Assembly (NCBI GenBank): GCA_003194525.1
Contig: NBIV01000047.1
Location: 248,001-312,000, forward strand
Length of the DNA stretch: 64,000 nucleotides
Direction: 5' to 3'
Origin: Gracilariopsis chorda
Taxonomy: Eukaryota; Rhodophyta; Florideophyceae; Gracilariales; Gracilariaceae
Shown: positions 1,042 to 58,830 of the stretch, one piece after another
How positions within the stretch are numbered: the stretch's first letter is position 1
Layout of the letters: every line of letters begins with the position of its first letter
The notes under the pieces: generated by a model
Database searches by the model: none
Seen by the model: only the letters and a program-made list of their open reading frames with translations
What the model was told of the DNA's origin: nothing
Program-made: the position numbers and the translations under genes

Positions 1042-2225
1042 AGGGGGGGCATACAATTCTGGAAATCAATTGGTAGAGTGCGGAGCAACGTAGTGATAAA
1101 GCTGGAGCGGTTGTTTTGTTTCCAACTGTAAAGAGGTTTCAAAGACAAAACTGATATGGAAGGGTTCACATTGTGGGGCCTTGTTAGAATAGACTCCAGA
1201 GTACAATGGATGACGACGCGTTGTGTATTCAGAAGCCGTCGATATCGCTGTAGTCACTAATAGATACGATATGAATACGGGTCCGGCATTCTGAGCTGTT
1301 CCTGAACTGTACGTTTCTGGGAGAATGTTAATTGCATAGAATTATATCGAAAGGCACGGATATGTTGTGCTGACGCTGTGGCTCAATGTCTAAAGAACGG
1401 ACCAGGGCGCGCGCGTGTTTTCGATTGAATTCGGTTAGGTCAAGTTTAGAATGTGCGTCATCAACACGAAAGAAACGCACGAGCTCCTTATGGCAAGTGC
1501 AAGGGTACAAACCGATCCGCATTCTCGAGGTGTACACGTCTTCCTTCCGCCAACGAGGGAAGCGAAATGGACAGGCGATTGGGTCTCTCACGGAAACCAA
1601 CAACCCTTCAACAAGTGCAAGCACCGTACTGCATTGGGGAAGTGGTAAGGTGGTGGGCGTATTTTCGGAATTAGCGTTTCTGGAATGCACTCAAGACAAC
1701 TAGCACTTGCAGAACCAGGATGGACGCTTTTTTCATTTTTGTACCTGTTGTAAATGCATTTGAAGGCACAACTGTGCCCAAGGTCAACTACTCACGCGAT
1801 TGCAAGTTGAGTCGTTCTTCAGTGATAACTTTGCGTCATTCTTCAAAGGTACAGGGCTTGAAGGCTATCTACGGGCTGCTGCGTTGCTCCGCGTGAGGCA
1901 GTTCGGTCAGTGCGCAAATGTGCGCCCTCTTTACTGTACCCTTGTACCGTTGGTACCTTTTGCCGTTGGTAAAACTACGACGTGTCACACGCTAGAGTTA
2001 CCAAGCTCATGATTACAGTAACGATCGTGTTGGAGTTGTAAGAGCTAAGGGTTACCGTAAAGGTTACCGCTACCGTCGTATCATATACTTTAGTTGGAAA
2101 TGAAAAATATATGACCTCTGTGGTAAACTACAGTAGGCTACAGACTTCGCAGAGGCTTGAGTTCTTCCCTCGCACGGATCATCTCCAGCAAGCGAGAACC
2201 CAAGGGCGCATCTCTGTCGACAAGA
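1042..2225. other. Intergenic region containing one short mobile element
   Basis: This 1.2-kb gap between the RWP-RK gene and EIF1AD has overlapping short ORFs on both strands (about 1328-1703), but none has recognisable domains. It holds copy 1 of a short dispersed repeat at 1504-1611. Shortly before the EIF1AD gene there are several close variants of GGTTACCG/CGTTGGTA (around 1947-1970 and 2050-2070), which could be regulatory; no function is shown. Confidence 0.5.
1504..1611. mobile_element. Short dispersed element, copy 1, with 10-bp target-site duplication
   Basis: About 105 bp here match 8269-8373 in the same orientation at roughly 92% identity (8 mismatches counted by eye). The match stops abruptly at both ends. 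At exactly those ends lies a direct repeat, CAAGTGCAAG, at 1494-1503 and 1612-1621, which is not shared with the other copy. That is the signature of a target-site duplication. The element has no ORF of note. It contains a small hairpin (CTTCC...GGAAG around 1539-1561). No polymerase III box or poly-A tail could be recognised, so the class is unknown. Confidence 0.7.
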
Positions 2226-2750
2226 ATGACAACGCCCGGAAACCGCCGCCGACGCACGCAGCTTCTGTCCGAGCTCCCCGCGCTCAAGCCCGGCCAACAG
2301 GTGGCGCAAATAACGCGCGCGCTCGGCGAAAACACGTACGAAGTGCGTCTGGAAGGCGGCCATCTGCAACTGGTCCGCCTGCCAAAGCGTCTGCGAGACG
2401 TGGCGTACATCCGTCGCGACTCCTTCGTCTTCGTCCGCGAGCACGCCGAAGCGCGCGGGCGCGTTGTGGGCGACATTGAGTTGGTCGTCCTGCCCGCCTT
2501 TCTGCCCGCGCTTCGCAAGGAGCACTTCTGGCCCGCCGCGTTCCACCCGCACCGTTTGAAGCGCGATGAGCACGACGTGCCCGTGCATGACTCGTCGGAT
2601 AGCGCGGAGGAGGATGACTGGCAACTGGGGCAAGGCAATCCGAATAGGCGCATGTTGAGTCACATGGCCTCCTCCGACGAAGAGCTTTCATCTGATGAGG
2701 AGCACAGTGAAGATGACGATGACCGACAGCCCACCGCACACTCGCATTAA
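2226..2750 (+). CDS. EIF1AD: EIF1AD-like protein (eIF1A domain, S1/OB fold)
   Basis: 174 aa from the ATG at 2226; the frame is open for 23 more codons upstream but without an ATG. The N-terminal basic segment (GNRRRR) leads into an OB-fold of the eIF1A type at about residues 15-95, with the pattern of binding a nucleic acid and returning a short basic strand (LVRLPKRLRD). The signature that points to EIF1AD rather than eIF1A itself is LRKEHFWPAAF near residue 100, matching LQKEGFWPEAF in the animal protein. An acidic Ser/Asp/Glu tail with NPNRR follows, also typical of EIF1AD. The animal protein is nuclear and its molecular role is poorly defined. The gene converges on Mfd with 109 bp between the stops. 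Confidence 0.85.
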   Translation: MTTPGNRRRRTQLLSELPALKPGQQVAQITRALGENTYEVRLEGGHLQLVRLPKRLRDVAYIRRDSFVFVREHAEARGRVVGDIELVVLPAFLPALRKEHFWPAAFHPHRLKRDEHDVPVHDSSDSAEEDDWQLGQGNPNRRMLSHMASSDEELSSDEEHSEDDDDRQPTAHSH

Positions 2751-2859
2751 TCTTGTGTGGCCCATCTCGTCCTCCACAACACAGAATCGAGTACAAGCAA
2801 CGCGCAGCATCGCACCGCGCCAGACCACTGCCGGTTTACGTATGTACAAACATAGTTCT

Positions 2860-5193
2860 TTACTCCAACACATCATACAAAGCGTCAATAAGCTTATGAC
2901 TCTGCGAGTCATTTTCGCCATCCCCCCCACGTCGCGGCCAACTCTTTGCCGCCTTGGTCAAACCCTTCAACAAGCTACGCAACTTGCCCAACTGCACATC
3001 GCCACTACAGATGCCAAGTCCCCTCACCACAACCCTTTCCTCCAGCACCAAGTGCTCCAGTCTGGACCGCGCCTGTTTATCTTCAATAAACGCCATCAGC
3101 GACTTGAACGCCTCCTCCTCCAACGCCCATTCCAGGATCACATGCTGTCTCTCCGACACGACGCGTCGAATGCCCAGTTCCTTTGCAAACATTTTCAGCT
3201 CCAGCACAGAGATGTGCCGGATGGTCGAGCCGGGTAACGTGCCGTAGCGCGCCCGCATCTTGTTGGCAACATACAGCAACTCCTTGCCGGTCTTCGCCGC
3301 AGACAAGGCAGTATACGCGGCCATTTTCTCGTCAACGTCCGGAACAAACTCTTCCGGAATCAACGACGACACCGGCAAGAACACTTCCACCGTATCAGTA
3401 ACAGGCAACGACAGCGGGATAGGCTGACCAGTGCGGATATGCTCCAATTCCTCGGCCAGCATTCTGGCGTACTCCGTAGCTTCCACGGAATGGTTTCCAT
3501 GTTGCTCCACGCCAAGTACGGTTCCAACCCCCCTCATCTCCATGTCCTTTTGGGCGATGCGAAAGCCGGAACCCAACTCATTAAACTGTTCCAAAGTCCT
3601 GAGTCGTTGCACAGCCTGCATACAGCGCCCTCCACTAGACTCGGAGTACAAAAACCACGCATACGCCTGACGATCACTTCGCCCCACTCTACCACGCAAC
3701 TGATGCAGTTGCGCCAGCCCAAAGCGCGTGGCATCATGAACAATGATAGTATTGACATGCGGCATGTTAATGCCGTTCTCTATAATAGTGGTACACACAA
3801 GCATGTCATACTTGCCCGTGACAAAATGCCAAATGCGCTGTTCAAGCCCCGACGTCTGACCGTGTGCCACAAGAATGCGCAAGTTGGGAAACATGTCACG
3901 CAGCCAGTCCGCAGTGGTGTCAATGCCATCGATGCGCGGGACGACGAAAAAAATCTGGCCGCCACGACTGATTTCGGCCGAAATGGCGCGACGAACCACG
4001 CCCGCTCCCTTGGGATAAACGTAAGTAGCAATCGGTTTTCTTCCCTCGGGCGCCTCTCTTAGTATGGACGCGTCCCTCAGGCCGTTGAGTGTAAGATGCA
4101 AAGTTCGCGGTATGGGAGTGGCGGACAAGAACAGAGTGTCAATGCCATGGTATCGAGATCGAATCTTCTCCTTTTGGTTGACGCCAAAGCGATGCTCCTC
4201 GTCGACAATGAGAAGGCCAATGTGCGCAAACGATATGGTATCACTCAGCAACATGTGGGTTCCAATTGCAATACGACACACCCCCTGCTCAACTGCAGCG
4301 CGAGCGTCAGTGATAGTACGCTTCGGCATAAAGCGGGTCATGCACGCAATGTGGTACTGCGGGTAATGGGGTAGGAAGCGCTGCTTGAAAGTTTCATAAT
4401 GCTGATGTGCCAAGATGGTAGTAGGAGCCAGAACGGCCACCTGTTTACCGGCGCTCAAGGCTCGAAACGCGGCGCGAATGGCCACCTCTGTCTTTCCGAA
4501 GCCAACATCGCCGCACAAGAGGCGGTCCATTGGGATGTGACGGTCACTGAGATCACTCAACACCTGCTGCACGGCGAGGTGTTGGTCGTTGGTGAGGGTG
4601 AATGGACAGGCGTCGAAAAAGAGTTGCTCGGCGTGTTGATCGACTGGAAACGGGTGTCGTGTGACGTGGTGACGAGAGGCGTACAAATGATGCAAGTTGA
4701 CGAGCTGACGACGAATGTGGTCGCGCGCTCGGCGACGCGCCAAGTAGCGCGCTTTACTGGACCTTGCTTTGCGGCGACGTTGCAATAAATCGGGCTGCAT
4801 GTTGTCTAAACGGCGAACTTGGGCGGCGTCGTCGGTGGAAAGGGTGCGGAGCATCTCGAGTTGACTGAGCGGTACGTACAACTCGCCGTCCCTGTAGGAA
4901 ACGACGGCATACTCTTGCGGGGCGCCGGCAGCGCTGTTGGCGCGTTCGAGGCCGATGAAGCGGCCGATGCCGTGGCGGGCGTGAAGCACGAGAGCGTCCT
5001 GACGCAAGGTGAGCATGGGGGAGGACGGGAAAGCGGGGGGGGAAGAGGGTGGTTTGGGGGGAGGCGATTGAGGGGCACAGGGACAGGCTGCGGCGGAGGG
5101 GGGGGGAGTTTGGGTTGGAGTTGAGAATACCGGCCAGATCGGCGGTGCTGAGGGACTCGGCGGCGAGCTGTCGGCGGCGCTGATCGTCGCCAT
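2860..5193 (-). CDS. mfd: Transcription-repair coupling factor, plant-type short Mfd (probably plastid)
   Basis: A superfamily 2 DNA translocase that in bacteria removes stalled RNA polymerase and recruits UvrA. From the ATG at 5193 it has 777 aa. Visible in order: a CarD-like RNA polymerase interaction domain (HARHGIGRFIGLE) near residue 65; Walker A GDVGFGKTE at about 228; DEEH box at 331-334; FLSATPIPRT; the motif VI region QLRGRVGRSDRQAYAWF; then a TRCF C-terminal domain. The UvrB-like N-terminal module of bacterial Mfd is absent, as in plants. The N-terminus is uncertain: in another frame an ATG at 5351 opens a Ser/Pro/Ala/Arg-rich stretch that looks like a plastid transit peptide. Joining it to this frame needs a one-base shift, and the intervening DNA is full of G homopolymers. 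An assembly indel or a missed exon is likely. Plastid location is inferred. Confidence 0.92.
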   Translation of the reverse strand: MATISAADSSPPSPSAPPIWPVFSTPTQTPPPSAAACPCAPQSPPPKPPSSPPAFPSSPMLTLRQDALVLHARHGIGRFIGLERANSAAGAPQEYAVVSYRDGELYVPLSQLEMLRTLSTDDAAQVRRLDNMQPDLLQRRRKARSSKARYLARRRARDHIRRQLVNLHHLYASRHHVTRHPFPVDQHAEQLFFDACPFTLTNDQHLAVQQVLSDLSDRHIPMDRLLCGDVGFGKTEVAIRAAFRALSAGKQVAVLAPTTILAHQHYETFKQRFLPHYPQYHIACMTRFMPKRTITDARAAVEQGVCRIAIGTHMLLSDTISFAHIGLLIVDEEHRFGVNQKEKIRSRYHGIDTLFLSATPIPRTLHLTLNGLRDASILREAPEGRKPIATYVYPKGAGVVRRAISAEISRGGQIFFVVPRIDGIDTTADWLRDMFPNLRILVAHGQTSGLEQRIWHFVTGKYDMLVCTTIIENGINMPHVNTIIVHDATRFGLAQLHQLRGRVGRSDRQAYAWFLYSESSGGRCMQAVQRLRTLEQFNELGSGFRIAQKDMEMRGVGTVLGVEQHGNHSVEATEYARMLAEELEHIRTGQPIPLSLPVTDTVEVFLPVSSLIPEEFVPDVDEKMAAYTALSAAKTGKELLYVANKMRARYGTLPGSTIRHISVLELKMFAKELGIRRVVSERQHVILEWALEEEAFKSLMAFIEDKQARSRLEHLVLEERVVVRGLGICSGDVQLGKLRSLLKGLTKAAKSWPRRGGDGENDSQSHKLIDALYDVLE

Positions 5194-5362
5194 CGTTGTG
5201 GGGGGGGGGTCGATGGTCGGCGCGCTTGGCGGCCAGACGGCGCTGGGCGACGGAGGGGGGGGTTGGCGGGGGGGGGCGGCATCGCTGGGCACGAAGAGGG
5301 GGTGAGCGCAGGCGCGGGGGGGAGAGGGGAGGGGGAGGGGACGAACGCCATGGGGGGTGTGT

Positions 5363-5387
5363 GGGGGCTGGGGGCTGGGGGCTGGGG
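5363..5387 (+). promoter_or_regulatory. G-quadruplex-prone G-run cluster upstream of Mfd
   Basis: Four consecutive runs of 4-5 G separated only by CT dinucleotides form a textbook intramolecular G-quadruplex pattern. A 14-G homopolymer follows at 5396-5409. The cluster lies upstream of the Mfd start, with the G-rich strand opposite to the Mfd coding strand. Whether it regulates anything is inference; it is also a plausible source of assembly error. Confidence 0.6.
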
Positions 5388-5436
5388 TTGGCGACGGGGG
5401 GGGGGGGGGCGAGGTGGCGCTATTTTAGCAAAAAGG

Positions 5437-6405
5437 TCACGCCCAGTCGCCCTGGATGGCGCGGTACTCGGAGTGCGCGCGCTTGAGCGCGGCGCTGTCG
5501 GCGAGGCGCTGCGCGCGCGCGTGCGCCAGACGGCGCTGCACGCGCGAGCGCGCCTCGCGGATGAGCAGCGCCTGCGCGGCCAGGTGGCGCTTGGTGCGCG
5601 TCTTGAGGCGCTGCGGCAGCGCCAGCTGCCGCTTGGCCACCACCAGCTGCAGCTTGAGGCGCTCCACGCTGTCCGACGCCTCCGCCGCTGACAGCTTGGC
5701 CTGCACCAGCAGCCGCTCCTTCTCGCCCACCTCGCCCGCCTTGGCGCGCCCCCCCGCCGCCGCGCGCGCCGCCAGCACCGCGCACCGCGCGCGCACCGCC
5801 TCGTGCGCGCGCAGCGACGCGCGCATCTCGCCCTCGATCGCCGACAGCGTCCGCCGCGTCAGCCCCTCCACCACGCCCAGCTCCACGAACCCGCCGTGCG
5901 CCGACTGCAGCGCCGACATCTGCGCGTCCAGCAGCTGCCACAGCGGCCGCCCAGCCGCCGCGCCCGCCGCCGCCGCCGCCGCCGGCGCCGCCGCCGCCGC
6001 GCTGTGCTTCATTACGGCGCGCGAGATCGGCTTGCGGATGGCGGCGTAGAACGTTTGCGACGCGCGCGAGAGAAACGACGCGCGCGGCGCCGGCGGCGGC
6101 GGCGCGGGCGCGGGCGCGCTTGCGCGCTGCGGCTGCGGGGGGGAGCACGCGGGCGACGGCTCAGTGCGCACCGACAGTTGCTCCGAGTCAAACAGCGACG
6201 AGTGCGAATGCGTGGCTGAGGACGGCGTGGGCGGCGCGGAGGAATCGTCGTCCAGCTCGTGGTCCAGCTGCTGCACGCGCGGCGAGGAGGCGTCCAGAAT
6301 GGTGTCGATTGGAATCGGGCGAAGCGGCGTGCGCGGCGGCGTTGTGTATAGCGAACTTGTGCTTGTGGACGAGGGCGACGGAGGCGCCGCGGACAAGTTT
6401 GTCAT
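5437..6405 (-). CDS. Coiled-coil protein of unknown function, very GC-rich
   Basis: 322 aa from an ATG at 6405. I do not recognise the family. The first 130 residues are Ser/Pro/Thr-rich and likely disordered; residues about 135-155 are an alanine run with AAAAAAGAAA-type repeats. From about 155 to the end the protein is predicted helical, with many Ala, Arg and Leu and a heptad-like spacing (LWQLLDAQMSALQSAHGG, then ERLKLQLVVAKRQLALPQRL), suggesting an elongated coiled coil, perhaps BAR-like. There is no signal peptide or membrane segment. The gene sits in the GC-richest part of the window, and several other frames are open simply because stop codons are scarce. This frame is preferred because it has an ATG, an ordinary domain layout and the most natural residue composition. 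It is divergent from the DUF2039 gene, sharing a 269-bp spacer. Confidence 0.65.
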   Translation of the reverse strand: MTNLSAAPPSPSSTSTSSLYTTPPRTPLRPIPIDTILDASSPRVQQLDHELDDDSSAPPTPSSATHSHSSLFDSEQLSVRTEPSPACSPPQPQRASAPAPAPPPPAPRASFLSRASQTFYAAIRKPISRAVMKHSAAAAAPAAAAAAGAAAGRPLWQLLDAQMSALQSAHGGFVELGVVEGLTRRTLSAIEGEMRASLRAHEAVRARCAVLAARAAAGGRAKAGEVGEKERLLVQAKLSAAEASDSVERLKLQLVVAKRQLALPQRLKTRTKRHLAAQALLIREARSRVQRRLAHARAQRLADSAALKRAHSEYRAIQGDWA

Positions 6406-6426
6406 TTTGGTCGCCGTCGGGAAGCG

Positions 6427-6456
6427 CTGATGCTGATGCTGATGCTGATGCTGATG
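6427..6456. repeat. (CTGATG)5 microsatellite
   Basis: Five exact hexamer copies followed by degenerate CTTGTG/CTGGTG units, lying 21 bp upstream of the start of the minus-strand coiled-coil gene, so probably in its 5' leader. Confidence 0.9.
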
Positions 6457-6674
6457 CTTGTGCTGGTGCTGACGGTGGTGGCGCTGCGCGCGCTGGTGGC
6501 GCTGGCACCTCTTCGGAGCACGGCGTTTGAAGTTTTAAGATACTGTAGTCTACATAACCCTTCAAGTTAAAAAGGCTTTAACCGTTACACGTATAGCCGT
6601 TCACCGTCGCCCATCTTGCCCGCGTCACCACGTCCGACGCGCCGCCCACCACGAAGAGAGCCCCCCCCCCCCCC

Positions 6675-7306
6675 ATGAGTACGTCAAGCGGCCCCAAACG
6701 CCGCGCCCAACGCCACCAGAACGCATTCGCCTTCCGCCACAACAACAACTCCAAGCTCTCCAACAAGATCCAACAAACAGTGTCAACGCACAACTTGTGC
6801 GCCTCGTGCGCCCGCAAGATCGAATGGCGCGTGCGCTTCCGCAAGTACAAGCCCTTGTCCGCCCGAAGAGCTGCAACAAGTGCCGCCTCAAGACTGTGCG
6901 CGCCGCGTACCGCACCGTGTGCACCGCGTGCGCCGCGCCGACGCGCCTGTGTGAAATGTGCGCCAACAACAACCCCGCGCCGCTCCGCGCGGAGCCGCAT
7001 CCCCGCTTCGACCACCCCGCGCATGTCATGCGCTTTGTTGACACGCTTTCGGAACGCCACAGACGCACCGTGCTTCGTTTGATCCATCGCGGCGTCCCGC
7101 TGACGCAGGCTATGAGTAACATTGGCGTCACCGTTGCACACAATTTACCACCACCGGCTGCACCACCGCCTTCACCACCGCCTTCACCACGTGCTTCGTC
7201 GCAACAGCAACCCGTGCAGCACCAATACGCCAATCACCACGGCCACACCCCACATGAAGCCGAACAACCATCGGCGTCTCATACACAAGCAACCGCTACA
7301 AGCTGA
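6675..7306 (+). CDS. C9orf85/DUF2039-family zinc protein with a one-base frame break
   Basis: The ATG at 6675 opens a frame reading QRHQNAFAF, then LCASCARKIEWRVRFRKYKPLS, matching the conserved start of the eukaryotic C9orf85/DUF2039 family (QKHQNTFSF, then C-x2-C, then EWRVKYSKYKPLS). At about 6857-6863 the match moves to the next frame: RPKSCNKCRLKTV, then VCTACA and LCEMC, which supply the remaining Cys pairs, and continues to a stop at 7304-7306. The two halves fit without gap apart from one missing base. Codon structure and all paired cysteines are kept on both sides, so an assembly or sequencing indel is more likely than a dead gene. The C-terminal 70 residues (Pro-rich, then His/Gln-rich) are an extension beyond the usual family length of about 110-180 aa. 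Family function is unknown. A run of 14 C directly precedes the ATG. Confidence 0.75.
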
Positions 7307-9077
7307 GTACTACCAACTAGTAAAATTACAACTGCTCATACAGTACCACAAAAGTGTCTATCCCACAAAACACCCGTACAAGCTTCATGCTATACTACCC
7401 CCCCGCGTTCAACTCACCTCATCTTTTTTGTTTCTCCGTCTCTATCATATCGTTGTCAACGCCCCTCTGTCTGCTTCAATCCGCCACTACTTTTGATCAG
7501 CCCCTGTACCACCGCACTGTACGTAATACGTACTACGTATCGGTGCATCACGTAGCAAACTGCCTACCCTTGCTATCTGTCGGCGAGTACAAGCGTTTCA
7601 TGTCCTTGTGGATACAGTGCTGCATCAAAATCGTCCTATCCACGCTGCACGTCCTGACTGCGTCCTGTCCGCCGCTTTGTTCAGTCTCTGCACGTGTGCC
7701 TGCCCGAAAAAGAGCATTGCATTCATTCACACCATCAATATCTTACCAGACACACCTTCGATACCTTCTGCTTCACATCATGCTCGCTCACTCACTCTCA
7801 TACCTGCGCCTCCTGCTCTTTCGATACAAGCGCAACGCTTTTACCCGCTGTACACCAACTTTATCGTCATCATCTTTCCTTCTTAAACTTGTACAAAAAC
7901 AACCCCCCATCTTATCACACATACAGTATCGTCAAAACATCATCGCGCGGGACACTTGTATCTATCCATTAACCAAAGCCTTGCGTCCCGTATCACTCAT
8001 GTTGCTGAACTACTTCACAACGTCACATGATGCTAATCGATACCGTCGATACCGCACCCAAGCTCCATTTTTCGGAAGCACCTCTCAACCACTTTTGGAT
8101 AAAGTGCAATGTACGAGAGGTACTGACCGCTTGTGTGCTCGTATCGAAGAACAACACAACATCAAACCAAGCGCCAACTTTACCCCGTCACCTCCGCACA
8201 TTCACGAGTACTTTGCCAAAAGTACCAATACATAGCTCTATCCTCATATCGGAATCAAACCCTTTTTTGGGTACAAGCCGATCCGCCTTCACGAGCTGTA
8301 CCCGTCTTCCTTCCGCCAACGAGGGAAGCGAACTGGACAGGCGATTGGGTCTCTCACGGACACCAACAACCTTGTTTTCAAACCCTTTTTGTGCTCGCGC
8401 CCCGCGCACACAAACAAACAAAACCTCATCTGTTTTCACTGCGCTCTGTTTCGTACACAGAATGCCGCCCTGCACTGAACCCATGCACCGCCACGCCTAT
8501 GTCTACCCACCAACTTTTGACTCCGTAGGGGCTAGAAACTTACTGTACTTGTTCACGTCTCAAGCATCTTGTCCGCAACATGTTGCAAAATTATCATGAC
8601 GATCATGTGATACACCCTGATACACCTGCGTTACGAAGGGTGCAGTCAGAACCAAACATTCGCAGCAGGGGGTTTGAACACGTACTCCTCCGGGAGTCGT
8701 TCCCCTGCTTCTAACGATAAAATAAGCGCTTTCCTTCATTCGTTCTTTCGCTTGCGCATCTTCCAGGCATCAACGGTTGTTGTTGTCATCAGCTCTTTCC
8801 CCACGCTCCAAAATAGGAGTGATGTGCATGTAATGTTCGGTTGCCCCCAGACCGTTCAGATTTGGTAGCCTTCTGGAGCAACGAAGCAAAGCAGACACAA
8901 GTTCTTTCTCTGCACCACACAGAACCCCTTGTTGAAGGCTAGCGCTAGCCTCGGGTAGTTAAAAAAAAAAGAAAAACGCGCCTCGCTTTCCTTTTTCGTA
9001 AGCTTTTTTGGCAAGAAGCTGCTACTAAAATCTAGCCGATGCCTCCCTCCTGACGATGGCATCCCCATCGCCCCATC
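7307..9077. other. Intergenic region, pyrimidine-rich, one short mobile element
   Basis: This 1.8-kb gap is C/T-rich and G-poor on the plus strand, so long ORFs arise in several overlapping frames (the longest 293 codons, 7354-8235) without recognisable domains; I do not call a gene. Copy 2 of the short dispersed element lies at 8268-8377. The last 400 bp before cycloartenol synthase contain an A-run (8961-8973) and no recognised element. Confidence 0.5.
8268..8377. mobile_element. Short dispersed element, copy 2, with 13-bp target-site duplication
   Basis: This is the second copy of the repeat at 1504-1611, in the same orientation. It is flanked exactly by TCAAACCCTTTTT at 8255-8267 and again at 8378-8390, a 13-bp perfect direct repeat absent from copy 1. 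The independent flanking duplications in both copies argue for two separate insertions rather than a segmental duplication. The lengths (10 and 13 bp) fit target-primed reverse transcription better than most cut-and-paste transposases. Confidence 0.72.
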
Positions 9078-42875: not shown

Positions 42876-43167
42876 AATTTTAATTACTCTAGAACTTTAT
42901 CAAAACCTTAAAACTTTTCCAAAAACTTTTTCGCTTTGATCTTCTCGTCATGTCTTTTACGCCGGCAGCGCCGAATCATGTCCACAACACATCACCAACA
43001 GTTGTAGCTGTCACATCAAGCACTATCGTCAACAACATTTGTACAAAATGGCCCCATCCACAGATCTTATAGTTCAAAGAACACCTGGTCAGCCATGTTT
43101 CATGTTCGAATTTTGAAATTTAGGGCCATGCGAATCAGATTTCATTTTTTTTAATTTTGCGTGCCGT

Positions 43168-43195
43168 TGCGCTGACCTCATATGAGGTCAGCGCA
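43168..43195. repeat. 28-bp perfect palindrome
   Basis: Two 14-base arms meeting at CAT|ATG without any spacer (arms read outward from 43181/43182). The core equals the palindrome 308 bp to the left. A related imperfect version, CCTCATCATGAGG, occurs at about 43626-43638. Confidence 0.9.
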
Positions 43196-43526
43196 CCGGT
43201 CCGATAGAAACTAGGTATTTCATAAGTTTAGACCGCAAATCCGTGCAGTGGTCATGTGATTTTTATTTTGAACCATGTCATGGTAAGTTTCACAAACCTA
43301 AAAGTCAAAAACATAAGACGTCATTCTCCTCATTGGCCCTAGAAACTAAAATCTAGTATTCTCTGCGGATTGACCAGTAGCCCGTGTTATAGTTTGCACT
43401 ACAAAATACTGTCAAGCGTATGACCACCTACACACTCCTCTACCATCTTTATTTGTACTACAACCTTTCTTAAATTCTGCAACGTTTTCTTCTTCTTTCT
43501 TGACGATTTTTCTACTGCACGTCATG

Positions 43527-45028: not shown

Positions 45029-45109
45029 GTGTGGGAGCTCACTACAAGTATAGCCAGACAAGCTCACATCAGTGTGTGGCCAGACACTTTTGTAGCTCAG
45101 TCGTTTCAG
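45029..45109. repeat. LTR-derived block related to 53625-53760
   Basis: About 80 bp, from GTGTGGGAGCTCACTACAAG to AGTCGTTTCAG, match the outer half of the gypsy LTR at 53625-53760 in the same orientation. The LTR copy has an extra roughly 53-bp segment bounded by CACTACAAGT. It lies to the left of the 45678 block, the reverse of the order inside the LTR, so these are pieces of at least two old insertions. Confidence 0.65.
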
Positions 45110-45677
45110 AGGTTACGGTGTTGGTATGTTCTGTCTGCCGCCCAACTCATTAGTCAAAGCCAAGCGATGTTTCTGTCCCGAAAAGAGTATTTTTCTGTTC
45201 CGCCGACAACAATTGATAGCAGTGAGAACAAAAAGAAAAACTTTCTGTTCTCTTGACGCAGATCGAGAATTGGAGAATGAGGTTTCCGGAAAGGCACAGC
45301 GATGGGCACACCCCTAGTCGGTTGCCCCCTGCCGCCGAGCCAGTGGCTCCGAAGGCGAAAGGTATTTTATTTGAACATTCTCTTTTCTACTTTCACTCTG
45401 TGTGGTTCAGAGCAGAAAACCGTTCTGGTCTGCGGTATCAGAAACCCCCAACCAATTTATTCTTTGCATACATTTTTTGGGTAGCACCACGCATATGCGG
45501 CGGCAGAGACCCTGTGCAACATACCGCTTCAGGGAGGAGCTGCACCTCTGCCTCTGATGGATCTCCCCGGGGGAGGAACCGCTGACCGTGCGCTACGTAG
45601 CGGCTGTATACGTGAGCACTGTGTTGGTGGTTGGGGTTTTTCATCATATGAGCCCTCATTGTTGCCGCTGTAGTACA

Positions 45678-45852
45678 TGAAATCAACGTAAGTGGCTTGC
45701 CTCCTTCCCTTCGAGTGTAAGTGGGGAGGCCGGCCCTTTTATTGAGATCAGCCCCCCTCAGAGATTGCCGGGAGGCCAATCAAAATGGTTGATAAACACT
45801 GGCGTGCCATGCACGCCAGTAAAACTCCCACAGGTGAGAGCCGTGCAACAAC
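45678..45852. repeat. LTR-derived block related to 53246-53424 (gypsy LTR end)
   Basis: About 175 bp align with the inner end of the gypsy LTR at roughly 80% identity by eye, starting TGAAATCAACG here and TGAAAGCAACG there. The shared core includes GGCCAATCAAAATGGTTGAT. The 17 bases just outside also resemble the primer-binding region beside the other LTR. Similarity stops at about 45852, where the sequence runs toward a minisatellite. Probably the end of a diverged LTR of the same family. Confidence 0.65.
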
Positions 45853-46072
45853 CAGCCTCCGGAAAAGCCGCCACGGGCAGTTACAGTAGTGCAATCTCTT
45901 TCTCCTCACTATTCTCCCTCTCACAACTACTCTTTCACGTCAAAATACAACTTGCAGGATTTTTCTTTCTCCTAGCCTCGCCTTTGCCTCCATTCCCACG
46001 CTTGCCCACTTCGCCCCTTGCGCTACTACATCCTTGATACCCAGCACTGCTTCCGCTTCCGACCCGCGTCCT

Positions 46073-46336
46073 GCACTGCCACTTTCTCCACGGAAACACT
46101 CTGTTCAAGCGTCTGCTCCGCGCCTTGCGCCCCAGCACTGCCACTTCCTCCACGAAAACACACTGCTACGGCGTTTGTTTTGAACCTTGTGCCCTGGCAC
46201 TGCCACTTCCTCCACGAAAACACACTGCTACGACGTCTGTTTCGCACCTCACGCCCTGTCAATGCCACTTTCTCTACGGAAATACACTGTTACGGCGTCC
46301 GCTTCGCCCCTCGCGCCCAGGCACTGCTACTGTGCA
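46073..46336. repeat. 62-bp minisatellite, about 4.2 copies
   Basis: Units beginning GCACTGCCACTT (one begins TCAATGCCACTT) start at 46073, 46135, 46197, 46259 and 46321, an exact 62-bp step. A shortened, diverged piece lies just before (around 46041). Units 2 and 3 are nearly identical; the outer ones have diverged more. The period is not a multiple of three and no reading frame is kept, so it is not coding. It lies beside LTR-like DNA and may be derived from it. Confidence 0.9.
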
Positions 46337-48599: not shown

Positions 48600-51500
48600 T
48601 TTATCTTCAGTTCTTGAAATTTTTTGGTCTTCTCACATATGCGACAAGGCGTCGAGCGTGAGTAGAACTCCTGCTTATCTTTCCATGACTTGAAGTGAGA
48701 ACATATGACGGATGCTTAGCTCTAATGATCGTACGAGGACCATAGAACTTGGACATAAACGGGGGACATTTCTTGGATTTGTTCACACTTGCTCCTCGAG
48801 CTACTAGCACTTCATTTTCTACTTCGAATTACTTATCTTAAGTAATTCGTTGAGGTCTCAGGTGCATCATAGCTCGTCTGGCTCTTTGAAGCAAAGCAGA
48901 GTCTTGTTTCACCCCACAATGTAAGATATTAGTGTGTATAACAAGGGTGAACAGATCATCTTGAGACATACGTGGGGGAACACCATATAACAATTCAAAT
49001 GGAGAAGGTCCATCTCTCAGAGGACTGCGCTGGTATCCGTACAACACCTTCCACAAAACGTCGTCCTAAGGCTCGGGCCACTCTAAGATGCTCTTTGTCA
49101 TAGACTTCTTTAGAATGCATATCAGTCGTTTGGATCTGCCATTTGACATTGTTGCATATGTCATCACCGTCTTCTAAGTGATTCCATGAAGTTTGTTGAA
49201 TTCTGACAGAGCTTTTGCAGTAAAGCTGGTAGCATTATCTGAGATTGCGATACGAGGCTGGCCGAGTGGAGCCACCATCTCTTCTTCTAAACACGCGATC
49301 ACATCTGTGGCCGTAGATGTCGGCGTGGCATTCGCTATTTTTCAACCTGTTACATGCTCTACTCCCATGAACATAAAGTGATTCTCCCGAACTGTCGTGG
49401 GTAAAGGTCCCGCAAATTCGATAGAAAACGTATGAAATACGCCCTTCAAGGGGTATCGGGGCATAGTTCGATATGTTGGGATACTCTTTGCCGACTGGCA
49501 CCCATCACAGCATTTCACATGCTCTGCAACATGCCGGTATACTCCACGCCACAAATACCGTCCTTATACGAATTTCTTGGTAGTACCAATGTCCCAGTGT
49601 CCAATGTCGTCATGAAAACTCCTTAAGATCTGCAGTCGGTTTCTTACTCTTGGTATCACTACAAACCCTTTCTTCACCCTTCGAAAGAGCCTGCCATTCC
49701 ACACCATATAGATCCCTGCGTTTCTCTTACTCTTACAACGTTCGAGAGGGTCCTTATCCTTCAATGTCAATCCCAAGACGTAATTCGCTGTATCGACAAG
49801 ATACTGTTCTAAGTCTTCCCATGTTGATTCTTCTGATGAAATTGTCAGTACGAAATCAGCAATCTCTTGTTCTTCGGATACTTCTATACGTGAAAAGTAG
49901 TCTACAACACGGTTACTTGCCCCCGGTCTGTACTTTATCTCAAACTCATACTCTGACAAAAAATCCATCCATATTACAAGTCTCCCATGAATATCCCGGT
50001 TCCTACACGCATATTTCAAGGCCTGGTGATCATTAATGAGTGTGAATGGGAGAAAGGACAGCAAGTAAACACCAAACTTTTTCAATGCAAAGATTAGTGC
50101 TAATGCTTCGCGTCCGCAGGCTGAACAGCGTTTCTCAGCTGCTGTCATCGTACGGCTGGCAAACTGTACGGGATGTAGTTTGCCTTCTCTTTTCTGAGAA
50201 AGAACAGCTCCTAGCTACATAATGGATGCATCAGTTTCAACTACGAAGGGTTCATCACAGTTTGGAAATCCCAGAGCAGGGAGTTTCACCAACTTCGCCT
50301 TGATGCGCAGAAAAGTTCCTTCCATTTGTGGACCCAAAGCCATTTTTTCTTTGGTGACGTGGCGTCACGCAAGGCAGCGGATGCTTCATCAAACCTAGGT
50401 ATAAACCGTCGATAGTAACTGGCCAGTCCAAAGAAAGTTCTTAGTTCTGTTGAGGAGGCTGGACCTGGAGCTGGCTGTATAGCTTTGATTCTTTCTGGGT
50501 CCGTTGCGATTCCCATCTTATCGAGTATATGTACATGTTTCAAGAGCTTCAATTCATGCTTCGCAAAACTGCACTTAGCCAGTTTAGTCTTAAACGCATG
50601 CGAGGCAACTCTGCCGACTACTTTTTCGCAAAGCATCAGGTGATCCTCTATATTATAGGAGTAGATAACGACGCCATCCAGGTAGACACGAACGAAGAAT
50701 AAGTCTTTCTTCATGGCTTCCATCATTCTCTGAAAGCTAGCAGATGCATTCATCAAACCAAATGGCATAACTTCGAACTTGAATGTACCGAATCTGCAGA
50801 TGAAATTATTCATCTCTTTACAATCTTCGGCCATCTCCACTTGCCAATATCCTGAAATCAAATCTAGAGTTGTTAATAGCGAAGATTCACGAAGGTCATC
50901 AAACACGCCTTCTATGCGTGGTAATGGCCAACGATCGGACTTCATCTTGGCATTCAATGCACGGTAGTCTAAGCAAAATCTCCGGCTTCCATCTTTCTTT
51001 GTTACAACTACAAAATGAAAGGACCAGGCAGAGTTTGTCAGTGTGACGATTCCTGCACGAAGTATTTTATCACTCTCTTTTCTCACTACATCATTATGTC
51101 GCGGTGGGACAGATCTTGCCCGAGAAGTTAAAAGTTCCAGATCTTTCAGATCAAAAGAATGCCCTACTGGGACATCAGCAGGTCTAAGGTCTTCCAAGCA
51201 TCAAGCAACTACCTTTGAGTTTATTAGTGTTCTGGAGAGGTGCATTTGTGCGCTTTTCGAGACATTCTTGATCTTTGTCGCAAGTACTGCCGATGTTAGG
51301 TCGTTCTCTTCTTCGACCAGGTTCAGCACCTGTAACTCTTCTTCCCCAATATCACAATCTTCATCTTCTTCTAAGAACTGGGGGATGGTCTCTTCAACTT
51401 CACCCTCACCGTTCATCATCGGGTGGGATTCGATCTCTTTTGCAAGAGCAACAACCAGCTCCTTATCCTTGTAAATTTCCGAACTGGAAGAATCTGGGTA

Positions 51501-53904
51501 TACCTCTGAGGCTGAGGTGAAATCCTCACTGTCGGTCTCGGATCCTTCCATATCGAGGATACGTTCATTGTACTCTAGATCTGAAAATATTCTTTTTCAT
51601 CAATAATCACGATCACAGTATGATTTACCATGTCACTTCAAGCTTGAATGTTCTCAAAGGTTGGGGAACCAGTAATCACATGTACCGGTGGGTCATCCAT
51701 AAGTAGAAAGTTTAGTAGAGTCCTCGACTCACAGAACAGGACAGGAATGTCTTATATGACGCCTTGCACTGCAATAGGGCTTCCATCGGCGACTTTAAAC
51801 TTCCTCGTCGTTGCTTCTGGCGAGATTGTAAGTTATTCCATCACAAAAGTGAAGAGGAGATTTGCACGCCTCCTGAGCCTAGATGTGCGTTGAATGTGGT
51901 TCCGAACCGCTTCAGTCTCACAACTTTCATTCTTTGAATACTTCCGGGCCTATTGGCAATAGCAACCTTCTGACTTCTAGCATTCTTTACAGAGAGTTTC
52001 TGGATCTTTCCTTTTGTCTCCTCAGTGCATCCAAGAAGCAGTTGTCTAAATTTGAGTACATTTGGCAACTCGATGAGTACATTGTACCGTCTTACAAAGT
52101 CTGAAATTCCACCTTTCGTGCTTTCTAGGCCTTCTTCCGGGATTTTTTGTGGTATTTGGGCTTAATTCTCGTTCGAACTCGTAAAACCTTCCGTAAGGTC
52201 GATGATAGAACCTGGGTGAGGGTTCTGCAACTCGTTTACGGCCACTCTTCTGGTTTTTGGCTGCTTCCGCAGAACCCTGCCCTCAGAATCTCTCTTTGTA
52301 TAAGTAACAGCGTCTTCTTCTTTTCCAGGATATCTCAGTTTATCTCCTTCTGCTTTCAGGCAGTTCTCCTCAGCGGCGATGGCCAGCTTCGGTATCTGTG
52401 GCCCGGACCAACCCGTAGCTTCCGATTGTCCCATTTTACCGCATTAGGAGCATCTAGTGTTCCGGTGCGGATTCTTGTCACAGCGATTGCCCCATGTCCT
52501 GGCTTGTGGCAAAACAAACAGACACGAACGTTGTCCTCTTCGTTCGAAGTTTACATCTTCTTGACCAAGAGCGTGAGCTCCACTATCTGAAAAGCGAGGT
52601 ATATTACGTTATTTTCGAGTGACTCCACAGTTTGTTCGGGACGAGGAAGAATCCCTATAGCATGCCTTTGCTTACCTCCTTCTTTTCTCTTTCCAACATA
52701 CGCTTGGCCGACAGTTTCTCAGCAGCGAACGTAGTCTCGAATCGTACGCTTGAGAGACTCGTAGTTCTTTGCACCTGCTAGCAACACATACTGAGCCAGG
52801 TCTATATGCTCCATCACTGCATTCCTCAGCAGTCCGAACTTTACTTGATCCTTGAATTTGGCCTTCTGGAAGGAAATGTCCATGTTCGTTAGCGAAGCTG
52901 CCATATCTAAGGGTCAAAGCTTGCAATCCATGGCTCTACGGATACAACCCTCCTGACTGACCACTTCAGAGAACTCCTCAATCATTACTTGCTTGACCGC
53001 AGCGTAATCATATGCGTCTTCGATCAGCTGTCCTTCGTATGCGTAAGTCTCGTAATAGCAGTCATAGCGCTTTTCCTGTCAAACCCGGCAAGAGCAGTGT
53101 TGCTTTTTCTAAACAATTTGCATCTTTGGCTATAACATTTTTAAAGAAGAAGAAGAACTTGACTATATCTGAGTCCGGTTCAACACTGAACACAATTTTT
53201 GAAGACGACGACATCGTCCTGAAAAGGCACTCCACGGGAGTACCATGAAAGCAACGTCAATTGCTTGCCTCCCTCTCTTTGGGTGTGAAGTGGGAAGCCG
53301 ACCTGTTTATTGAGATCACTCCCCCGGACAGATTCCGGGGAGGCCAATCAAAATGGTTGATAAAAACTGGCGTGGCATGCACACCAGTAAAAATCCCACG
53401 CGTAGCAGCTGTGCCACAGTACACAGTTCGATTCTCACCAGTCGCCATTTCCTATGCTCCAAACGTTCCATTGCAAAAATTCATACCGATCACCGGGTTG
53501 TATTACACGTCTACACTACCAACACATCTACACATCTACACATCTAAATATCTACACATATACCAAATACGTCGTCAAAAAGTTACATACGCTTTGCTTC
53601 GGCTTCACCGAGTTTGACCGAGGAGTGTAGGAGCTCACTACAAGTTAATTTACTTATTCAAACTTGGTTCCGCCTACACTCGCGGTGGTGCACTACAAGT
53701 ATCACTGGACAAGCTCACATCAGTGTCTGGCCGGACAATTTGGTGGCCCAGTCGTTTCACAGTAAGCGATCATTCGTGGTTCTAAAACAAATTTGTAATT
53801 CGTCTTCTTTCATACTTTTGAAGAAAGACTCACAACATATGAGTTCAGTGCTAGGTCAGGTATTGAGTGCCGCAGCAGTTTAACCTACTTCAGGATTGCT
53901 TTCA
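48600..53904 (-). mobile_element. Ty3/gypsy LTR retrotransposon fossil (broken)
   Basis: Read on the minus strand from right to left: an LTR (53246-53904), a primer-binding region beginning TGG directly beside it, a gag region (about 52.2-53.0 kb, including a zinc-knuckle-like piece near 52.5 kb), a protease-like region (about 51.8-52.1), reverse transcriptase (about 50.3-51.2, with CLDYRALNAK and RWPLPRIEGVFDDL), RNase H (about 49.6-50.1, with YACRNRDIHGRLVIWMDF), integrase (zinc-binding end CDGCQSAK near 49.5, then PFELLYGVPPR near 48.9) and a C-terminal tail to about 48.6. The domain order RT-RNaseH-integrase places it in Ty3/gypsy. It is broken, with roughly five to ten breaks. The left LTR was not located with confidence. 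Moderately old by the state of its frames. Confidence 0.9.
53246..53904 (-). repeat. LTR of the gypsy fossil (5' LTR on the minus strand)
   Basis: 659 bp bounded by a perfect 9-bp inverted repeat, TGAAAGCAA at the left and TTGCTTTCA at the right, the TG...CA form of an LTR. On the minus strand the next bases inward read TGGTACTCCCG, as expected for a primer-binding site (TGG pairs with tRNA CCA). It contains a tract rich in CATCTACACA repeats around 53516-53565. Confidence 0.8.
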
Positions 53905-54564
53905 CAACGAGTGGCAACCCCTTTAAATTTTGTTAGAAAACGCCAGCAGAATCGTTTTAGCGCACCCATGTGGCAGGCCAGATTGCTCGCACAGCTAGTG
54001 CCAACGCAGTTTTGGGACCTCCACAGCGTTGGTCAAAGTAAGTCAATCGTCTTGGACGTCCCAAAACTGCGCTAACGGGCTTTGCACACCATCTTTTGGT
54101 GTGCTATTACGCTCCGCTCGTCGTTGAATGCTACGCTGCGAGTGGCAGAAAGCCTCCTTTCTTGTTTCATATACAAATTACTAACAAGTCGTCATATAAA
54201 TCTGTTCTGTTTCTCTTGAATGGGTTTCTCGTAAATGGATAAAAGGTTTTATAGAGGAAGAGAAGAAGGATATGATACTATCAAAAGCACACCTATTTAG
54301 ATTTTAAAATCTCGAATTATATCTCAGCCGTTTTGGAAAAGTGCTCTTGGTTTCCCACCAGAAAATGCGTACAAGTAAATGTTCCTGTTATCGTCTACTA
54401 TCGGTACCATTAAGAAACTAATGTATTCCAGGATTTATTTAAACTAAAAAACGATTAACGTAGGATTAAAGTGCAGTTATTATTACGAGCACTACTCAGG
54501 CACAGATGTGCATGTGTACGCGGAAGATCAGCCAAAATTTTCATCGCTTGCAGAGCTCAAGCAG
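53905..54564. other. Spacer between gypsy fossil and Helitron, with a hairpin
   Basis: 660 bp without coding potential. The only structure seen is a 14-bp perfect inverted repeat (54005-54018 and 54058-54071, arm CGCAGTTTTGGGAC), listed separately. Confidence 0.5.
54005..54071. repeat. Inverted repeat, 14-bp perfect arms, 39-bp loop
   Basis: Arms CGCAGTTTTGGGAC (54005-54018) and its exact reverse complement (54058-54071). Could be a MITE remnant or the foldback end of an element. Confidence 0.75.
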
Positions 54565-54663
54565 TCCCGTACATTATAGTAAATACAATGATTGTCTGTC
54601 TTTGTGTCTGTGTGAGAACAAACGGCCACTAATTAGCTGTAGAATGGACAAGGAGCCCGCCCA

Positions 54664-54729
54664 GTGGAAAATTGTAGCATAATGCGCTCCAACAGGCACT
54701 TTGCACCGCGTTATGCTACACTTTTCCAC
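54664..54729. repeat. Inverted repeat in the Helitron 5' region
   Basis: Two 23-base arms (54664-54686 and 54707-54729) complementary except at two positions, with a 20-base loop; weaker pairing continues outward for several bases. The equivalent place in the second 5' copy (about 60665-60727) keeps the outer part of the stem only. Confidence 0.8.
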
Positions 54730-55563
54730 CTGGCGCCATTTTCACGCCACAGTAGCCTAGCATTTTGACTAAAGTAGCCCACCCGTTACACAACAGTAAC
54801 TGACCTGTTGCAGTGTAGTGCACATGACCTTTTTAAGTAGTATTTTCAACGGTCTTCTGCACCAATGGCATTTCAAGTTATACAAAATCGTGCAATGCAT
54901 TCGCCCACTGAGCACTCGCGTGCTTCTTTGCTTAGATTAACCTACAGTTGTGAGTTCGAGCGCTCTGGGCGAGATAAAAAGTCTGAAAAATATATGGTCG
55001 TGGCACTGGTGGGATATGTTAAGTGTAACTTTCTCTCCGAATAACGCGCTCGCCATCCAGATTTAACTGTTTCGGAAACTATTTCTGGGTGGCGTTCACG
55101 TGAGGTACGATAGCTCCACACAAAACGTGCTTTGCAAGGAAGGGGTAGCCCTTGAAGAGTCTAGAAAGTCGAAAACAGAGTACGAGTAGAGCAATAGCTG
55201 CTCCGTCTGAATCTATGGAACTGTTAAAGGGAAACGGTCTTCAGAGTATAGTACGTCCAGCACAGAGTTTCCAAACGAATTGGAGATTTAAAATCTCGAA
55301 GTCCTGCAGACGTTCCAGGCACGGCCCCCTTTTTACTCTGTGCAGGTTAGTCCCCAATCTAGGCGGTTTCTCCGTGGTCAAGATATTTTATCTTCGTTGC
55401 AAAGACACAAAACGCCAGTAATAGGTATATATACGGGTTTTGCAGACCGCAGCACATTTTTTATCGACCATGTTTCTTCTCTTTTCCTTCTTCTTCTTCT
55501 CTTTCGTTTCGCTGATGTTGGGTTGTTTTAATTTCTTTCTTTTCGATTTACGTCTATCTCACA

Positions 55564-57595: not shown

Positions 57596-58830
57596 AGTAG
57601 GTGCTGAGGCACATGACTCGCACTCCGTGCAGTGCAGGCAACTGGTCAGTGCTGTGCATACGCGAGCTGACTTGCTTGAAGCAATTTCCTAAGTGGTTTC
57701 GCTCCGAACCAGCACGGCTTGAGAATAAATAGTACATCAGCTAGCGACGACGCACTCCTTCCGAGGGTGGGGTGTCTGTAGAGCGAAGCTTTCGGGTCGG
57801 GAGTTGACAGCGCATAGTAACGTTGAACAATATTTAGTTGGTTCCACATTGTCTAGGGCGTCTCCGTCGGTTTGCTTGCCGAATCAACGTTGAGCTGTGC
57901 GTATCGCGAATTGGCCGTATGAAGTACCTCTTCAAGTATGTGTGCAAAGGTTCCGACAGAGTCATCATGGAAATTGTAGATGAGAATGGACGCCATGACA
58001 AGATCCAGAACTCCCAGGACGCACGGTATGTGTCAGCCTCCGAAGCAGTGTGGCGGATGCTTACATTTGACATTGTTGAGCGCTATCCACCCGTCGTGCG
58101 GCTCGAAATACACGTGGAAGATACCAATACGGTGTTCTTCGCGAACGGCGAAGAGCATTCTGCTGCTAACAGAGAGCGGGCAGGAACCGAGCTGACTGAA
58201 TGGTTTTTGGCCATCCAAAAGTATCCCGGAGCACAGCATATCCTTTATCCCCAGTTCCCAAGGTACGTTACTTAGAACAAATCAAATAAATGCTGGAGGC
58301 TGCGTGCGTGTCTTTGACGTCGTTCAGTATCTCAAAGCCAGCCCATCTCTTCCTCAGCTGCCACTGCCGCCGATTTATATGACTTCACTGGCAGCATGGT
58401 GGATGTAGTTGGGCGCATTTATACTGGCATTCCACGAAAGGATCTGCGGTACTACCTCCGCTTACTCCTGACCAAGGCAGTGGGTTCTATTTCCTTTCAG
58501 CATCTCCGCACCGTGGATGGTCAGCAGTGCAGTACCTTTTGGGATTTCTTGGTAAAAGCGGGCCATCTTGCAAACGACAACGCGTGGAAACAGGCTTTGC
58601 GGGAGTTGTGGATTTTCCCATTTTTTCCCCTCTCTTATTCCTTTGCCACCATCTCGCTGTACTGCAAGCCGCCAGAGCCACATACTCTGTGGGAGCAGCA
58701 TCTATCCATGTTTCCTCAGAATATACGAGCTCTAAATCGGGGCATGATGCAGGCACTGGCTGAAGACGAAAGAGCCAGCCAGCTCTTACGTTCTGTTAGA
58801 AATGCAAAAGGAAATGCAAGAAATGGGTGA
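57596..58830 (+). pseudogene. Helitron transposase: central region between Rep and helicase
   Basis: This frame resumes with HMTRTPCS and LKQFPKWF (Helitron pattern HMxHGPC, then CxKxFPKxF), then INVELCVSRIGRMKYLFKYV and CKGSDRV, then DARYVSASEAVWRMLTFDI, ending near 58275. After a gap, 58396-58830 continues with YLRLLLTKAVGSISFQHLRTV and an FWDFLVKAGHLANDNAW block. These are all recognised landmarks of Helitron proteins in the right order. A few stop codons interrupt 57720-57837, and a non-matching stretch of about 120 bp around 58276-58395 may be a former intron or a frame break. Confidence 0.8.

What the first reader, a model, noticed from the sequence alone, without database searches (positions are those of the whole stretch)
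1494..8390. A roughly 108-bp mobile element with its own target-site duplications
Two copies (1504-1611 and 8268-8377), about 92% identical over 105 bp by hand count, each stop exactly at a copy-specific perfect direct repeat (10 bp CAAGTGCAAG; 13 bp TCAAACCCTTTTT). Two independent insertion signatures in one window suggest an abundant family. It is too short for a normal SINE, and no polymerase III boxes, poly-A tail, terminal inverted repeats or ORF are visible. It may be a new ultra-short retroposon, possibly derived from a small RNA.
Basis: partly seen in the sequence, partly recalled or inferred. Interest (0 to 1): 0.8.

Follow-up and report, generated by a model that had tools for sequence, protein, structure and literature searches.

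The report
Tiny retroposon built around a ribozyme
Two copies of a DNA element about 105 letters long appear to have jumped into this genome through an RNA copy, and most of the element looks like a small self-cutting RNA that would trim its own front end, which would explain how so short an element could move without a promoter of its own.

Summary
Two copies (core 1503-1605 and 8269-8371, 96 of 103 bases identical, no gaps) sit in unrelated flanks, each bounded by its own perfect direct repeat of 10 or 13 bp. Repeats that long are rare in the same geometry elsewhere in the window. 'Retroposon' is the best reading; 'derived from a small RNA' is replaced by something more specific. The first ~74 nt fit the nested double pseudoknot of hepatitis-delta-virus-like (HDV-like) self-cleaving ribozymes, with the predicted cut at the element's 5' end in both copies. 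A descriptor of that fold hits the window only at these two sites; random sequence expects 0.16. A short 3' hairpin and variable tail follow. The closest known kind is the SIDE (short internally deleted element): a 5' HDV-like ribozyme joined to a LINE 3' end. SIDE lengths in the passages I read are 271-529 bp; this is ~105 bp and not in rDNA. Weak points: two copies only, no whole genome held, no covariation, P3 imperfect in both copies, no Rfam match, a descriptor written after seeing the sequence, no partner LINE found, no activity data.

The parts
1494..1503 (.). left target-site duplication of copy 1 (CAAGTGCAAG); its last G is shared with the element's first G
1503..1611 (+). copy 1 of the element (conserved core 1503-1605, copy-specific tail 1606-1611)
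1503..1576 (+). copy 1 HDV-like ribozyme fold: P1 1503-1508/1532-1537 (5 of 6 pairs), P2 1511-1518/1569-1576 (5 of 8), P3 2 of 3, P4 1540-1547/1555-1562 (8 of 8), predicted catalytic C 1563
   Evidence: (only the looser P1 setting hits it)
1579..1600 (+). copy 1 3' hairpin (6 of 7 pairs, weakened by one change)
   Evidence: (z 0.48)
1612..1621 (.). right target-site duplication of copy 1
8255..8267 (.). left target-site duplication of copy 2 (TCAAACCCTTTTT)
8268..8268 (.). single T between duplication and element; possibly an untemplated base or part of the T run
   Evidence: inference
8269..8377 (+). copy 2 of the element (conserved core 8269-8371, copy-specific tail 8372-8377)
8269..8274 (+). 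P1 5' strand (6 of 6 pairs); G8269 is the predicted first base after self-cleavage
8277..8284 (+). P2 5' strand, pairs with 8335-8342 (6 of 8 pairs, two adjacent mispairs)
8285..8297 (+). P3 and L3: P3 8285-8287/8295-8297 (2 of 3 pairs, one of them G-U), L3 8288-8294 UUCACGA with a C and a G where HDV-like ribozymes conserve them
   Evidence: conserved L3 C and G from PMC3774820
8298..8303 (+). P1 3' strand
8306..8328 (+). P4 hairpin, 8 bp, 7-nt loop, identical in both copies
8329..8334 (+). J4/2; C8329 is the predicted catalytic C
   Evidence: first J4/2 position from PMC10879173
8335..8342 (+). P2 3' strand
8345..8366 (+). 3' hairpin UUGG..CCAA (7 of 7 pairs with one bulge), proposed signal for the reverse transcriptase
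   Evidence: (-7.0 kcal/mol, z -1.33); role inferred
8378..8390 (.). right target-site duplication of copy 2

Best explanation
It is a non-autonomous retroposon of about 105 nt made of a 5' HDV-like self-cleaving ribozyme (nt 1 to ~74) and a short 3' hairpin with a CAAC-type end. Proposed cycle: (1) a copy is transcribed as part of a host transcript started upstream [inferred]; (2) the ribozyme cuts before its first G, releasing an RNA whose 5' end is the element's exact 5' end [predicted from structure, not assayed]; (3) a reverse transcriptase supplied by a LINE recognises the 3' hairpin and tail [inferred; no partner found]; (4) target-primed reverse transcription at staggered nicks inserts the copy and makes 10-13 bp duplications [supported by the two flanking repeats]. 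Because the ribozyme sets the 5' end, the element would need no promoter and complete copies would start at the same base.
For: Two copies in unrelated flanks, each with its own perfect duplication of different length, as expected of target-primed retroposition and not of a transposase with a fixed staggered cut. An HDV-like descriptor (G1; P1 6 bp; P2 abutting P3, at least 5 pairs; P3 at least 2 of 3; 7-nt L3 with conserved C and G; J1/4 0-2 nt; P4 at least 5 bp; J4/2 starting C-N-R-A) hits both strands of the window only at 8269 (P1 6 of 6) and 1503 (P1 5 of 6), the first core base of both copies. Random order-2 Markov sequence gave 18 strict and 142 loose hits in 113,155,536 strand-bases, i.e. 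0.02 and 0.16 expected for the window's 128,000; descriptors with the catalytic C replaced by A, G or T gave 0 window hits. Dinucleotide shuffles: copy 2 passed the strict descriptor in 2 of 1,332,303 (1 starting in the first 3 nt); copy 1 passed the loose one in 27 of 1,089,050 (6 in the first 3 nt). A version without P4 (P3 3 of 3) recovered the published ribozyme drz-Mtgn-1 at its first base. The geometry agrees with published R2 ribozymes: P1 typically 6-7 bp, P2 at least 5 bp with mismatches in about a third, J1/4 0-2 nt, conserved catalytic C (PMC3774820, passages).
Against: Only two copies, 93% identical, so the fold is not tested by covariation: 5 of the 7 differences fall at proposed pairs (P1, P2, P3 twice, the 3' hairpin), and each breaks a pair in one of the copies; none is compensatory. 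P3 has 2 of 3 pairs in both copies, counting a G-U whose U is also wanted by a 7-bp P1; P1 has a mismatch at its second pair in copy 1; P2 has two adjacent mispairs, and a third in copy 1. The descriptor was tuned after seeing the sequence, and an earlier, looser one without P3/L3 gave 11 distinct window sites including copy 2 but not copy 1. The loosest later setting gave 12 window sites, including both copies. No HDV-type family among Rfam matches up to E 10. Nested folding energies are ordinary (z 0.75 and -1.44; -0.92 and 0.67 for the ribozyme part), though that tool does not score pseudoknots. No partner LINE was seen in the window.
Confidence: 0.72

Rival explanations
1. An ordinary retroposed copy of some host structured RNA (retropseudogene or small SINE of unknown parent), mobilised by a LINE; the ribozyme likeness is chance.
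For: Target-site duplications of different length; short length; no Rfam ribozyme match; nested fold not unusually stable.
Against: The ribozyme descriptor hits only these two sites in 128 kb of strand, at the copies' first core base, and 1 of 1,332,303 shuffles of copy 2 passes it within the first 3 nt. No tRNA or known RNA family match.
Confidence: 0.17
2. A pol III-transcribed SINE with internal promoter.
For: An A-box-like stretch with 1 (copy 1) or 2 (copy 2) mismatches at nt 57 and 59 of the + strand.
Against: The best B-box-like stretch on the + strand has 3 mismatches to the stricter consensus (2 to a looser one) and lies upstream of the A-like one, the wrong order; on the - strand too the best B-like stretches lie upstream of the A-like one in both copies. 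Only the best match per box was listed; the consensus boxes are recalled. ARAGORN finds no tRNA.
Confidence: 0.04
3. A miniature DNA transposon (MITE) or an introner.
For: Short, with flanking direct repeats; introners can be ~100 bp with duplications (recalled).
Against: Terminal inverted match is at best 4 of 12 and 6 of 12 bases; duplication lengths differ (10 and 13). No GT..AG pair shared by both copies on either strand in the 35 bases searched at each end: copy 2 has no AG near the 3' end on +, copy 1 none on -.
Confidence: 0.03
4. Two decayed or truncated pieces of one larger repeat rather than a complete element.
For: Only two copies available; no partner or longer copy could be sought in the genome.
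Against: Both copies start and stop at the same conserved core, and each is bounded by its duplication within a few bases, as expected of a complete unit.
Confidence: 0.04

Closest known systems
SIDEs of Drosophila (R2 SIDE, R2/R1 hybrid SIDEs), PMC3414825 (passages seen)
   Same: 5' HDV-like ribozyme joined to a 3' end recognised by a LINE's machinery; non-autonomous; not pol III transcribed; 14-bp duplications for the R1-site hybrids.
   Different: R2Dwi_SIDE is 529 bp and SIDEs live in 28S rDNA; here ~105 bp, two unrelated sites between protein genes, no LINE partner known, no poly-A tail.
NARTc, RIME and SIDER elements of trypanosomatids, PMC4035085 (passages seen)
   Same: Short non-autonomous elements with a conserved 77-nt 5' hallmark (Pr77) that has an HDV-like ribozyme fold, active in several tested cases, dispersed in the genome.
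   Different: They are truncated or degenerate versions of L1Tc/ingi LINEs; some tested SIDER ribozymes were inactive; no sequence relation was tested here.
Persaeus, a CR1-derived SIDE of Lepidoptera, PMC6740152 (passages seen)
   Same: Short internally deleted LINE derivative, non-autonomous, dispersed.
   Different: Lengths in the table rows shown are 271-317 bp, and the first insert was 352 bp; poly-A end; the word ribozyme does not occur in the main text.
Retrozymes (hammerhead ribozyme retroelements), PMC7229834 (passages seen)
   Same: Tiny non-coding retroelements defined by a self-cleaving ribozyme; animal forms give RNAs of ~170-400 nt.
   Different: Hammerhead class, short tandem repeats (150-450 bp) moving through circular RNA; here single copies with an HDV-like fold.

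Membership tests
HDV-like self-cleaving ribozyme | Nested double pseudoknot P1-P4 with catalytic C at the first position of J4/2 | tested here: met
   Both copies, copy 1 only with one P1 mismatch allowed; P3 only 2 of 3 pairs in each. Descriptor written after seeing the sequence.
HDV-like self-cleaving ribozyme | Conserved C and G in L3 | tested here: met
   UUCACGA and UUCUCGA in the two copies.
HDV-like self-cleaving ribozyme | Match to a curated covariance model | tested here: not met
   No HDV-type family among matches up to E 10. Not strictly defining: motif descriptors have been used to uncover such ribozymes (PMC4870747, passages).
HDV-like self-cleaving ribozyme | Magnesium-dependent self-cleavage 5' of G1 | not testable with these tools
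   Needs an RNA assay.
Non-LTR retroposon (target-primed reverse transcription) | Target-site duplications of variable length at the element's ends | tested here: met
   10 and 13 bp, perfect; two insertions only.
Non-LTR retroposon (target-primed reverse transcription) | Empty sites in a related strain | not testable with these tools
   No whole genome is held for the window.
SIDE | 5' and 3' ends shared with an autonomous LINE | not tested
   No whole genome held. In the window, Pfam scans of the ORFs of 200 aa or more showed one reverse transcriptase (50286-51197, -), which looks Ty3/Gypsy-like by eye.
SIDE | HDV-like ribozyme at the 5' end (R2 and trypanosomatid types) | tested here: met
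   structural prediction only.
SINE | Internal pol III promoter (A box then B box) | tested here: not met
   best match per box.
MITE | Terminal inverted repeats and fixed duplication length | tested here: not met
Introner | Splice sites at the element's ends in both copies | tested here: not met
   35 bases at each end.

The most novel reading that the evidence does not exclude
A family of retroposons in an alga whose body is little more than a self-cleaving HDV-like ribozyme (about 74 of ~105 nt) plus a reverse-transcriptase hook: a minimal self-excising retroposon, shorter than any ribozyme-bearing retroposon whose length I saw in the passages read, spreading outside rDNA with no promoter of its own.
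Probability: 0.5. Interest if true: 0.8.

Novelty: new variant of a known kind. Interest (0 to 1): 0.64.

Why it matters
If right, it shows how little a retroposon needs: a ribozyme to define its 5' end and a short 3' signal for a borrowed reverse transcriptase. It would extend HDV-like ribozyme retroelements to another host group (probably an alga, species untested), to a length of ~105 bp and to dispersed targets, and it gives a directly testable RNA: one short transcript either cuts itself at the predicted base or does not. Ribozymes scattered by such elements could also cut host transcripts that carry them.

Tried and rejected
Known RNA families: cmscan at gathering score over the window and at E up to 10 around copy 1 and copy 2 gave nothing convincing. 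tRNA: none. Relatives elsewhere: exact 20-33-base patterns in viral contigs and genome contigs, and distant blastn of copy 1 in phages and copy 2 in plasmids, gave no related element; the two phage rows were 24-base matches at E 4. More copies in the window: none by blastn with short words or covariance model (the third row, 54601-54627, E 2.4, is taken as chance). Pol III SINE, MITE, introner: rejected. Coding: all three + frames are open in both copies, but the seven differences fall on all three codon positions, so coding is not supported. An alternative P2 pairing (nt 10-15 with 75-80) was considered by eye and set aside because it needs a long J4/2. LINE partner: of the 22 listed ORFs of 200 aa or more, 21 were scanned against Pfam (9, 8, 4); the remaining one is nested in a scanned one with the same stop. 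Shorter frames were only read by eye, and only for 42-62.5 kb.

Literature: nine answered searches listed no paper on HDV-like ribozyme retroposons of red algae. Several listings were capped (20 of 23, 15 of 117, 15 of 511, 12 of 540); the most direct ones, held 1 and 2 papers, seen as listings. The library holds open-licence PubMed Central papers only. Seen as passages: PMC3414825, PMC4035085, PMC3774820, PMC4870747, PMC4908430, PMC10879173, PMC7229834, PMC6740152. No paper was read whole.

Full report
What is there. Their shared core is 1503-1605 and 8269-8371 on the + strand: 96 of 103 bases identical, no gaps. The core is followed by a copy-specific tail of 6 bases. Each copy lies between two perfect direct repeats of its own: CAAGTGCAAG (10 bp) and TCAAACCCTTTTT (13 bp). 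The same geometry slid across the window gave a repeat of at least 10 bp at 59 of 63,750 positions and 13 bp at 11 of 63,750, the elements' own positions included. Flanks outside the repeats share nothing on the same strand over 50 bases or 1 kb. No third copy was found in the window, and no whole genome is held, so abundance is unknown.

What it is not. No known RNA family and no tRNA. No clear terminal inverted repeats (best 4 and 6 of 12 bases), no splice-site pair shared by both copies on either strand, and no A box followed by a B box among the best matches. Five exact-pattern scans of viral and genome contigs and two distant searches of phages and plasmids found no relative, as expected if the host is a eukaryote. 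Pfam finds squalene-cyclase, TRCF, ABC-transporter, eIF1A, DnaJ and aldose-epimerase domains in long uninterrupted frames, and RWP-RK and VPS13 N-terminal matches below their curated cut-offs. That fits an intron-poor alga, but the red-algal assignment was not tested.

The structure. Numbering from the first G (8269 = 1), the sequence fits the HDV-like double pseudoknot (pairs counted): P1 1-6 with 30-35 (6 of 6 in copy 2, 5 of 6 in copy 1); P2 9-16 with 67-74 (6 of 8 and 5 of 8, two adjacent mispairs in both); P3 17-19 with 27-29 (2 of 3 in each, one of them G-U); L3 20-26 (UUCACGA / UUCUCGA); J1/4 of 2 nt; P4 38-45 with 53-60 (8 of 8, identical in both copies); then CGAA, whose C is where the catalytic C belongs. 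A seventh P1 pair (7-29) is possible but competes with P3 for base 29. Published R2 ribozymes have P1 typically of 6-7 bp, P2 of at least 5 bp with mismatches in about a third, J1/4 of 0-2 nt, a conserved catalytic C and conserved sites in L3 (PMC3774820, passages). These are met; the weak point is P3. The two copies differ at one base on each side of P3, so each lacks a pair that the other allows. A P3 mismatch is on record in the jewel-wasp R2 ribozyme. [quoted passage not shown] Copy 1's mismatch is next to the cut, so I expect copy 1 to be weak or dead and copy 2 to be the one to test.

How specific is it. The final descriptor hit the 64-kb window on both strands only at 8269 (strict) and 1503 (one P1 mismatch), the first core base of each copy. 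Random sequence of the same order-2 composition gave 18 strict and 142 loose hits in 113,155,536 strand-bases, i.e. 0.02 and 0.16 expected per window. Control descriptors with the catalytic C replaced gave 0 window hits. Among shuffles of copy 2, 2 of 1,332,303 passed the strict descriptor and 1 began in the first 3 nt; for copy 1 under the loose descriptor, 27 of 1,089,050 passed and 6 began there. Without P4, and with full P3 asked for, the descriptor found drz-Mtgn-1, printed in PMC10879173, at its first base. Looser settings add other window sites, up to 12 in all, and an earlier rough descriptor listed 11 sites including copy 2 but not copy 1. The descriptor was written after the likeness was noticed, so these figures overstate its strength by an unknown amount. 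The least tunable point is that the predicted cut falls on the 5' end that the duplications mark independently, within one base, in both copies.

How it probably works. R2 and L1Tc-type LINEs carry such ribozymes, which free the element's RNA from a host co-transcript (PMC3774820, PMC4035085, passages). SIDEs keep only that ribozyme and a 3' end that a LINE's protein recognises (PMC3414825, passages). The present element has the same two parts in ~105 nt: the ribozyme, then a hairpin UUGG..CCAA (z -1.33 in copy 2, 0.48 in copy 1) and CAAC. Both duplications begin with (T)CAA and the core ends in CAACAACC, which could help prime reverse transcription; that is a weak inference from two sites. 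The extra T at 8268 resembles the non-templated bases described at R2 5' junctions. Shown here: copies, duplications, fold match and its rarity. Inferred: co-transcription, cleavage, LINE help.

What speaks against it. Two copies 93% alike cannot show covariation; 5 of the 7 differences fall on proposed pairs, each breaks a pair in one copy, and none is compensated. That is expected for decaying insertions but gives the fold no support. Rfam is silent. Nested folding energies are ordinary. No LINE partner was found: 21 of the 22 listed ORFs of 200 aa or more were scanned, the last being nested in a scanned one, and the one reverse transcriptase (50286-51197, -) looks Ty3/Gypsy-like (clade by eye).

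Verdict. I put 0.72 on 'ribozyme-bearing minimal retroposon', a new variant of the SIDE kind. Membership in SIDEs proper waits on a partner LINE. The SIDEs whose lengths I saw are 271-529 bp and hammerhead retrozymes are 150-450 bp per repeat, so ~105 bp would be unusually small; I make no claim beyond those papers.

Noticed in passing
about 48600-52400, - strand: Degenerate LTR-retrotransposon-like pol: reverse transcriptase (RVT_1, E 4.6e-22) at 50286-51197, with RNase H- and integrase-like frames downstream read by eye.
   Followed up: partly
45040-45850 and 53239-53762: Two pairs of direct repeats (72 bp 85%, ~180 bp 82%) flank the Gypsy-like stretch, but in opposite order on the two sides, so they are not simple LTRs.
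   Followed up: no
57600-60376, + strand: Pif1 2B domain (E 8.3e-07, ORF 59522-60376) with broken upstream frames, possibly a Helitron-type remnant (guess by eye); a 321-bp repeat pair (54564-54883, 60565-60883, 73%) lies around it.
   Followed up: no
61282-62844, - strand: Frames that look like a Copia-type polyprotein remnant, by eye only; Pfam found no family for 61603-62358.
   Followed up: no
46070-46331: About four tandem copies of a ~62-bp unit, roughly 75-81% alike.
   Followed up: no
43164-43199: A 36-bp near-perfect palindrome centred on CATATG.
   Followed up: no
6675-7306, + strand: A gene-like stretch whose start and stop, read by eye, are out of frame with each other, suggesting a frameshift, short intron or sequencing error.
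   Followed up: no
7354-8235, + strand: A 293-aa open frame ending just before copy 2 with no Pfam family; not known to be a gene.
   Followed up: partly
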